DNA from: Clostridia bacterium
GTDB taxonomy: Bacteria; Bacillota; Clostridia; Oscillospirales; Acutalibacteraceae
Reading direction: 5' to 3'
DNA length: 37,680 nucleotides
Assembly: GCA_024404195.1 (NCBI GenBank)
Contig: JAKSQJ010000009.1
Span: 1-37,680, forward strand
This document shows, piece by piece, positions 6,139-6,455 of this stretch. Under the pieces are notes generated by a model. It saw nothing but the letters and a program-made list of their open reading frames with translations. It did not search any database and was not told where the DNA came from. Made by a program: the position numbers and the translations under genes. Within the stretch, counting starts at the first letter, position 1. Every line of letters begins with the position of its first letter.

Positions 6139-6190
6139 ATAAAAAAACCGTAATTCTGCGAGAGAAATTTTTACTCTGCAAAATTACGGT
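6139..6190 (-). terminator. Leader terminator upstream of gtrA (possible attenuator)
   Basis: On the minus strand, ACCGTAATTTTGCAGAG (6190-6174) can pair with CTCTCGCAGAATTACGGT (about 6164-6147) and is followed directly by TTTTTTTATTT. Apart from one mismatch and a one-base bulge the stem is complete. It is a typical factor-independent terminator. It lies between the promoter at 6418-6446 and gtrA, so it would stop leader transcripts before the operon unless it is prevented from folding. Confidence 0.75.
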
Positions 6191-6252
6191 GATAATATAA
6201 AATATAACCAAAAAAGCGGCAAAAAAACGCGAAAAAATCTACAAAAATATGG

Positions 6253-6281
6253 TTGACAAAAGAAACAGGGTGAGCTACACT
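6253..6281 (+). promoter_or_regulatory. Plus-strand promoter firing into the tetranucleotide tract
   Basis: A perfect TTGACA (6253-6258) is followed after 17 bp by TACACT (6276-6281), three bases before the tract. Transcripts would start inside the repeat and run toward the DUF421 gene, opposite to the gtr leader. Confidence 0.5.
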
Positions 6282-6376
6282 CTGCTTGCTTGCTTGCTTG
6301 CTTGCTTGCTTGCTTGCTTGCTTGCTTGCTTGCTTGCTTGCTTGCTTGCTTGCTTGCTTGCTGCAATTTCAACCAT
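6275..6376 (-). CDS. Repeat-spanning leader peptide frame (candidate)
   Basis: With the present repeat number, the ATG at 6376 reads MVEIAASKQASKQ and so on, repeating A-S-K-Q through the tract, then meets TAG at 6277-6275 directly after it (33 residues). AAAGGA lies 10 bases upstream, and a good promoter lies just beyond. Because the unit is 4 bases, gaining or losing one unit changes the frame: with one more unit translation would end at TAA 6173-6171, in the loop of the terminator; with one fewer at TAA 6186-6184, in its first arm. No known protein family; whether it is translated is untested. Confidence 0.4.
   Translation of the reverse strand: MVEIAASKQASKQASKQASKQASKQASKQASRV
6284..6362. 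repeat. Tetranucleotide tract, 19 GCTT units (plus strand)
   Basis: GCTT is repeated 19 times without interruption from 6284 to 6359 and followed by a partial unit to 6362. The minus strand reads AAGC repeats. Tracts of this kind are known hot spots of slipped-strand mispairing and cause phase variation in Haemophilus, Neisseria and Moraxella surface genes. Here it lies in the leader between the gtr operon and the DUF421 gene. Confidence 0.97.
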
Positions 6377-6413
6377 ACTTGTCAAGTCCTTTCTTGTTTT
6401 TTGCAACTTATAT

Positions 6414-6455
6414 TTGAATTATATCATAAAACCCGTGATAATTCAATGGTTTTTT
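6414..6455 (+). terminator. Possible plus-strand terminator overlapping the gtr leader promoter
   Basis: TTGAATTA (6414-6421) and TCA (6424-6426) can pair with TGA and TAATTCAA (6436-6446), with a TA bulge; a run of T follows at 6450-6455. The stem is A/T-rich, so the call is weak. The same inverted repeat also overlaps the minus-strand promoter and could be an operator. Confidence 0.3.
6418..6446 (-). promoter_or_regulatory. Sigma-A promoter of the gtr leader
   Basis: On the minus strand TTGAAT (6446-6441) and a perfect TATAAT (6423-6418) are 17 bp apart, and TG precedes the -10 box by one base. Transcription would start near 6411 and pass through the leader ATG, the tetranucleotide tract and the leader terminator toward gtrA. 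Confidence 0.75.

What the first reader, a model, noticed from the sequence alone, without database searches (positions are those of the whole stretch)
6139..6446. Candidate phase-variable attenuator in front of a gtr glycosylation operon
Seen: a promoter (6418-6446, minus), an ATG with a ribosome site (6376), 19 perfect tetranucleotide units, a factor-independent terminator (6139-6190) and then gtrA. The unit length (4) shifts the reading frame when a unit is gained or lost. With 19 units the leader stops right after the tract (TAG 6277-6275), about 85 bases before the terminator. With 20 it would end at TAA 6173-6171, the first codon of the terminator loop; with 18 at TAA 6186-6184, within its first arm. 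In two of three phases a ribosome would thus sit on the terminator stem and could prevent its folding. Known: slipped-strand repeats switch surface genes in Haemophilus and Neisseria, mostly through the structural gene itself or the promoter. Inferred: here the switch would work via leader translation and attenuation, which I do not know as a described phase-variation mechanism.
Basis: partly seen in the sequence, partly recalled or inferred. Interest (0 to 1): 0.9.

Follow-up and report, generated by a model that had tools for sequence, protein, structure and literature searches.

The report
Repeat-switched attenuator before surface-glycosylation genes
A run of four-letter DNA repeats inside a tiny leader gene probably switches a sugar-modifying operon on or off at random by deciding whether a ribosome breaks a transcription stop signal; the same cassette sits before many unrelated genes of other, mostly clostridial, bacteria.

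Summary
At 19 units the leader stops far before the terminator; at 18 or 20 it would stop inside it. The claim that the mechanism is undescribed is wrong: Danne et al. 2014 (PMC3894217) showed it for Streptococcus gallolyticus pili with GCAGA repeats. What seems new is recurrence. Of 19 AAGC tracts found without conditioning on a leader or terminator, 18 have a leader start and 15 of 16 evaluable have a terminator. Related cassettes precede unrelated proteins. Across 47 elements with leader start and terminator, one frame stops within 12 nt of the tract in 85% (shuffles 44%) and one reaches the terminator in 98% (shuffles 83%). Assembled phases are mixed; near-identical cassettes often differ in unit number. 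Most likely a phase-variable leader-peptide attenuator of the pil1 kind, in a tetranucleotide version found widely in Clostridia. Switching and gtr expression are untested, and this window lacks the second promoter-like element of many relatives. New variant of a known kind.

The parts
6418..6446 (-). promoter P1 of the leader transcript (TTGAAT-17-TATAAT, TG before the -10)
   Evidence: a comparable promoter lies 32-88 nt before the leader start in 31 of 40 non-redundant elements, 6.0 expected from Markov-resampled sequence
6388..6392 (-). Shine-Dalgarno-like AAAGG of the leader
   Evidence: AAAGG at this place in 44 of 114 scan hits, 2.3 expected from control windows
6380..6385 (-). TTGACA between the leader's Shine-Dalgarno and start codon; in many relatives the -35 of a second promoter-like element P2, whose -10 is absent here
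   Evidence: here 20 nt before the tract, 24-32 in 111 of 114 scan hits
6275..6376 (-). leader ORF at 19 units (33 aa, predicted OFF phase); would end at 6184 (18 units) or 6171 (20 units)
6284..6359 (-). (AAGC)19 tract (80 bp of perfect repeat with partial units, 6283-6362)
6248..6283 (-). 3' flank, partly complementary to the 5' flank (predicted hairpin with the tract in its loop; holds the TAG and TGTCAA)
6140..6190 (-). intrinsic terminator between leader and gtrA
   Evidence: (-21.9 kcal/mol, z -6.6)
5593..6021 (-). gtrA (PF04138), first gene proposed to be controlled
4604..5569 (-). gtrB-like family-2 glycosyltransferase (PF00535)
2357..4594 (-). large membrane protein, possible third Gtr component (weak TIGR03766 match, below cutoff; no Pfam match)

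Best explanation
A phase-variable, ribosome-dependent transcription attenuator. RNA starts at P1 (6418). A ribosome initiates at the leader ATG (6376) and reads through the AAGC tract, which has no stop in any frame. Slipped-strand mispairing changes the number of 4-bp units and so the frame in which the ribosome leaves the tract. In the assembled 19-unit state it stops at once (TAG 6277), the terminator at 6190-6140 folds and transcription ends before gtrA (OFF). With one unit more or less it translates to a stop inside the terminator stem (6173 or 6186), keeps the stem from folding and lets RNA polymerase run into gtrA, gtrB and the third gene (ON). Shown from sequence: the parts, the frames, the terminator's predicted stability, the recurrence of the design. 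Inferred: that the tract slips in this organism, that the leader is translated, and that gtr output follows the phase.
For: Anatomy exact. Same design in 18 of 19 AAGC tracts found without conditioning on leader or terminator, with a terminator in 15 of 16 evaluable. In 47 elements with leader start and terminator one frame stops within 12 nt in 85% (shuffles 44 +- 7%, 0 of 500) and the longest frame reaches the terminator in 98% (83 +- 5%, 0 of 500); in 39 non-redundant 97% (1 of 500). Terminators of -20 kcal/mol or better in 54 of 94 downstream stretches, 0.8 expected from shuffles, 5 on the opposite strand. P1 in 31 of 40, 6.0 expected. Assembled phases mixed: 25 of 48 reach the terminator, 23 stop before; unit number mod 3 is 19/15/14. 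Near-identical flanks with different unit numbers: 19/12, 15/20, 9/15/22, 21/5. A 79-bp AAGC tract in Histophilus somni shows +-1 unit subpopulations (PMC6889271). The mechanism is experimentally supported for GCAGA repeats at S. gallolyticus pil1 (PMC3894217). Here the long frames end about 150-162 nt before gtrA, which speaks against simple translational coupling.
Against: No reads, transcripts or second strain of this species. 'Two frames reach the terminator', as in this window, is not enriched overall (43% vs 35 +- 6%), nor is passing the whole terminator (53% vs 62 +- 6%). Many relatives carry a promoter-like P2 (TTGACA-17-xAxAAT) whose transcript would start at the tract and skip the leader start, and several Betaproteobacteria have P2, tract and mostly a terminator without a Shine-Dalgarno-like leader start, so leader translation is not the whole story everywhere. 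The flanks pair and would bury the leader's start site. Weak promoter-like sites lie between terminator and gtrA. None of 29 congeneric gtrA loci examined has a repeat tract. Some homologous cassettes have the same unit number (13/13) or numbers in the same phase (9/15).
Confidence: 0.76

Rival explanations
1. Promoter, tract and terminator form a separate short transcript (a small RNA or leader made mainly of AAGC repeats) that acts without translation; gtrA is read from its own promoter behind the terminator.
For: P2 in many relatives would start RNA at the tract (-10 match of at least 4 of 6 at spacing 17 in 42% of hits, 0-16% at the other spacings). Several betaproteobacterial versions lack a Shine-Dalgarno-like leader start (L096 and L105 have an ATG without one). 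Weak promoter-like hits TTGAAA-17-CAAAAT (6138-6110) and TTAAAA-16-TATGAT (6044-6017), both 9 of 12.
Against: This window has no P2 -10. Shine-Dalgarno motifs are strongly enriched before the tract, P1 lies upstream of the start codon, and stop placement in the three frames is non-random; an untranslated RNA needs none of these.
Confidence: 0.14
2. The tract acts on the divergent gene (YetF/DUF421, 6529-7203, plus strand): a plus-strand promoter TTGACA-17-TACACT (6253-6281) reads through the tract, or the plus-strand repeat ORF is the switch.
For: 10-of-12 promoter match on the plus strand; open 84-aa plus-strand ORF across the tract.
Against: The plus-strand ORF has no visible Shine-Dalgarno, ends before the gene in all three phases (about 6417, 6457, 6503), and the DUF421 frame is closed by a stop at 6439. 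Only 7 of 40 elements have TGTCAA in the 3' flank that would give such a promoter. In the loci read the terminator and next gene follow in the AAGC orientation; divergent genes were not surveyed.
Confidence: 0.05
3. A neutral microsatellite that happens to lie between a promoter and a terminator, or an assembly artefact.
For: Only 1 of 70 species of the genus has it; tracts are rare (10 of 394 genomes of the order).
Against: The reversed pattern was never found in the same searches. The promoter-leader-tract-terminator order recurs before unrelated genes and related cassettes precede proteins with no blastp match. Tracts occur in many independent assemblies.
Confidence: 0.04

Closest known systems
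Streptococcus gallolyticus pil1 (and pil3) phase-variable attenuator, Danne et al. 2014, PMC3894217
   Same: promoter, short leader ORF with its own ribosome site, repeats wholly inside the leader, unit length not a multiple of three, intrinsic terminator before the gene, OFF when the leader stops short of the terminator and ON in the other phases
   Different: unit AAGC (4) not GCAGA (5); different lineage; gtr operon, not a pilus; flanks of the tract are complementary; many relatives have a second promoter-like element at the tract; the cassette recurs before many kinds of gene. Sequence homology to pil1 was not tested.
Salmonella and P22 gtr operon phase variation by DNA methylation, PMC2909390
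   Same: gtr-type glycosylation operon under random on-off control
   Different: that system is DNA-methylation-dependent (title and start of abstract in the listing); here there is no GATC between 5787 and 31874, and the control region has a repeat tract and a terminator instead. That Dam (GATC) is the methylase is recalled.
Tetranucleotide contingency loci of Haemophilus and Neisseria (repeat inside the structural gene)
   Same: tetranucleotide tract shifts a reading frame; AAGC or GCAA units are used there too (listing; four such loci by title and one by likeness)
   Different: there the repeat lies in the protein gene itself; here in a separate leader that ends before the gene
trp/his-type ribosome-mediated attenuators
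   Same: leader translation decides whether an intrinsic terminator folds
   Different: decided by leader length (heritable), not by stalling on scarce amino acids; no support for alternative pairing between 3' flank and terminator arms; no Rfam match

Membership tests
phase-variable leader-peptide attenuator (pil1 kind) | promoter upstream of a leader ORF with its own ribosome site | tested here: met
   in relatives
phase-variable leader-peptide attenuator (pil1 kind) | repeat tract wholly inside the leader, unit not a multiple of 3 | tested here: met
phase-variable leader-peptide attenuator (pil1 kind) | intrinsic terminator between leader and first gene | tested here: met
   (prediction)
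phase-variable leader-peptide attenuator (pil1 kind) | one phase stops well before the terminator, other phases within or past it | tested here: met
   statistics
phase-variable leader-peptide attenuator (pil1 kind) | unit number varies among cells or strains | tested here: inconclusive
   no second strain of this species; related cassettes in other genomes vary
phase-variable leader-peptide attenuator (pil1 kind) | expression depends on phase, start codon and terminator | not testable with these tools
   needs reporter or RNA data
Dam-dependent gtr phase variation | GATC (Dam) sites in the regulatory region (recalled as defining) | tested here: not met
   three GATC in the window, none in 5787-31874
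phase-variable structural gene (Haemophilus/Neisseria type) | tract in frame with, and part of, the protein gene | tested here: not met
   leader ends at 6275, 6184 or 6171; gtrA starts at 6021
known RNA families (T-box, riboswitch, other leaders) | Rfam covariance-model match | tested here: not met
   no match up to E = 1 in 4500-7600

The most novel reading that the evidence does not exclude
A portable phase-switch cassette (promoter, leader start, complementary flanks around an AAGC tract, terminator) is spread through Clostridia and has been copied in front of unrelated genes, several per genome in some, making random sets of surface proteins, regulators and glycosylation enzymes switchable. 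A second form without a leader start (promoter with the AAGC tract at its start site, then a terminator) in Betaproteobacteria switches by another, undescribed route.
Probability: 0.4. Interest if true: 0.78.

Novelty: new variant of a known kind. Interest (0 to 1): 0.62.

Why it matters
If true, a switching mechanism shown so far (in the papers searched) for pilus operons of one Streptococcus species is a general device of Clostridia, many of them uncultured, controlling adhesin-like proteins, regulators and, here, probably surface glycosylation. One could then predict from sequence, and count in existing metagenomic reads, which cells of a population are ON or OFF for a trait, in organisms that cannot be grown.

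Tried and rejected
Rejected: antiterminator pairing of the 3' flank with a terminator arm (5' arm -9.5 vs swapped -10.4; 3' arm -12.2 vs -12.1); control of the divergent gene; Dam-type gtr control; a known RNA family; conservation of the tract at gtrA in the genus (no repeat tract in the held DNA of 29 congeneric loci, L201-L229, some cut by contig ends; six further hits, one of them a second hit in G021, had no locus and were not examined). Led nowhere: a class-wide search gave one further tract (2 of 291 genomes, own included); viral contigs gave 13 stretches, printed and not followed. No strain-level comparison was possible: collection scans may leave out the window's own genome, and no metagenome scan was allowed. 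Leader starts and some terminators in that tally were judged by eye. No signal-peptide predictor was run.

Literature: searches. Judged by titles and abstract starts, no paper listed there describes AAGC leader attenuators in Clostridia; only open-licence PMC papers are held. Read: PMC3894217 (outline; sections 7, 13, 16), PMC6889271 (passages; section 7), PMC4240662 (passages). Others were seen as listings only.

Full report
OBSERVATION. The minus strand carries TTGAAT-17-TATAAT at 6446-6418, AAAGG 11 nt before an ATG at 6376, a perfect tract of 19 AAGC units at 6359-6284 (80 bp of repeat), and a terminator hairpin of -21.9 kcal/mol followed by a T run (z -6.6; 0 of 200 shuffles as stable). 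The leader ends at 6277-6275 with 19 units, at 6186-6184 with 18 and at 6173-6171 with 20. gtrA (PF04138) starts at 6021, followed by a family-2 glycosyltransferase (PF00535) and a large membrane protein with only a weak, sub-cutoff match to an XrtG-associated glycosyltransferase.

RECURRENCE WITHOUT CONDITIONING ON LEADER OR TERMINATOR. Searching genomes for AAGC tracts alone gave 1 of 70 species of the genus (the window's own), 10 of 394 of the order, 2 of 291 of the class and 7 of 398 of the family, each including the own genome; the reversed control pattern was not found in any of them. Together they hold 19 distinct tracts (required a non-A base before the first AGC; one of the 19 has only 5 full units). 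Reading their flanks by eye: 18 of 19 have a Shine-Dalgarno-like purine run and an ATG or GTG open into the tract (not G1051). Of 16 with enough DNA downstream, 15 have an intrinsic terminator: 10 were found in place by the automated finder and 5 only by eye (L063, L064, L069, L071, L241). The exception, G410, joins the tract in one phase directly to a histidine-kinase gene. One genome, G1039, has four copies that look near-identical (12, 12, 12, 15 units).

WIDER SET. TTGACA lies 19-32 nt before the tract although the pattern allowed more; AAAGG precedes it in 44 of 114 (2.3 expected from control windows); a -10-like hexamer lies 17 nt after it (at least 4 of 6 in 42%, against 0-16% at the other spacings). 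An automated finder saw some terminator-like hairpin in 71 of 94 tracts with enough downstream DNA; 29.0 are expected from shuffles and 36 are seen on the opposite strand, so weak ones mean little. At -20 kcal/mol or better it is 54 of 94, against 0.8 from shuffles and 5 on the opposite strand.

FRAME TEST. Of the 94, 63 have Shine-Dalgarno plus start, and 47 of these also have a clear terminator (five marked by hand). The window fell out of this set because its terminator ends beyond the set limit; it is in the 48-element set. One frame stops within 12 nt of the tract in 85% (dinucleotide shuffles 44 +- 7%, 0 of 500), and the longest frame reaches the terminator in 98% (83 +- 5%, 0 of 500; 39 non-redundant: 97%, 1 of 500). 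Against the reading: two frames reaching the terminator (43% vs 35 +- 6%) and passing it entirely (53% vs 62 +- 6%) are not enriched. Homology between elements makes these tests less independent than the numbers suggest. In 48 elements the assembled phase reaches the terminator in 25 and stops before it in 23; unit number mod 3 is 19/15/14, as expected if phase drifts freely.

PROMOTER AND HAIRPIN. A sigma-70-like promoter lies upstream of the leader start in 31 of 40 non-redundant elements (6.0 expected from Markov-resampled sequence), which an untranslated tract would not need. The tract's flanks are complementary in an element-specific way: mean duplex energy -21.5 against -19.3 +- 0.56 with swapped partners, 0 of 300 swaps as strong. 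Split up, the stretch from TTGACA to the tract shows it (3 of 300), the Shine-Dalgarno stretch alone does not (102 of 300). In the window the predicted hairpin takes in the leader's ribosome site, so only a ribosome that loads before its 3' side is made could translate; that step is inference.

VARIATION AND PORTABILITY. Cassettes with near-identical flanks differ in unit number: 19/12, 15/20, 9/15/22, and 21 against 5 in G407 and G377 with 119 of 120 upstream and 300 of 300 downstream bases identical. Others do not differ (13/13 in L063 and L064). Four related cassettes (L074, L084, L146, L174), and a fifth alike by eye (L078), precede five proteins with no mutual blastp match at 1e-4; L084 and L146 lie in one assembly. 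The proteins were picked mechanically and the one for L146 lies about 600 nt downstream. Other cassette groups precede homologous genes. Of 15 downstream proteins scanned with Pfam, matches include TetR and MalT-like regulators, a histidine kinase, an acyltransferase, BspA-type leucine-rich and InlB-repeat proteins, a dockerin protein and, in a betaproteobacterial locus, a pilin-type N-terminus; three have no match above a cutoff. Many other downstream ORFs begin like secreted proteins, by eye only. A 79-bp AAGC tract in Histophilus somni has +-1 unit subpopulations in circular consensus reads (PMC6889271, section 7). None of 29 congeneric gtrA loci examined carries a tract, so the switch looks like a local acquisition at this operon.

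MECHANISM AND PRECEDENT. Danne et al. 2014 (PMC3894217; sections read) showed for S. gallolyticus pil1 that out-of-frame gain or loss of GCAGA repeats in a leader ORF lengthens the leader peptide so that the ribosome prevents a terminator and pilus transcription rises; cells whose leader stops 39 bp before the terminator are low. The window meets every sequence-level feature of that system. By that rule the assembled 19-unit state is OFF, with the stop 84 nt before the terminator, and 18 or 20 units are ON. In the window the long frames end about 150-162 nt before gtrA, so translational coupling is an unlikely alternative; in L066, L068 and L069 a long frame ends within about 20 nt of the gene start and coupling could add to it.

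OPEN POINTS. P2, the second promoter-like element, is common in relatives but its -10 is missing in the window. It may be a real promoter, a sigma-dependent pause site that helps couple ribosome and polymerase (inference), or both; nothing here decides. Several betaproteobacterial versions have no Shine-Dalgarno-like leader start and may work otherwise.

VERDICT. Real, very probably functional, and of a known kind; the tetranucleotide cassette and its spread appear undescribed in the papers searched.

Noticed in passing
window 1-37680: GATC occurs 3 times where about 100 are expected from shuffles: very strong avoidance, suggesting a past or present GATC-specific restriction system.
   Followed up: no
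L076, L096, L105, L106, L121, L134, L139, L149: Betaproteobacteria by title (probably termite-gut bins, from recall of such names) carry TTGACA-17-xAxAAT just before AAGC tracts without a Shine-Dalgarno-like leader start; 4 of the 5 with enough DNA have a terminator downstream. In L076 the next gene is pilin-like.
   Followed up: partly
L235, L239, L240, L241 (G1039): Four near-identical AAGC cassettes in one genome, three running into contig ends; the one with DNA downstream precedes an ORF that resembles a modified-peptide precursor by eye only.
   Followed up: no
L065 (G410), L081, L082: Tracts of 28, 8 and 19 units immediately before a histidine kinase (in frame in one phase), an acyltransferase and an acyltransferase-like ORF (by eye): the in-gene or near-gene form with the same unit.
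   Followed up: partly
L192, L190: Viral contigs with 166 and 20 AAGC units behind GGAGG and an ATG, by eye.
   Followed up: no
window 1062-1287: Tandem repeat of period 99 bp, 2.3 copies, 96% matches, beside the tmRNA gene (1280-1626).
   Followed up: no
window 6253-6281: The complementary flank gives a 10-of-12 promoter match on the plus strand pointing through the tract towards the DUF421 gene.
   Followed up: partly
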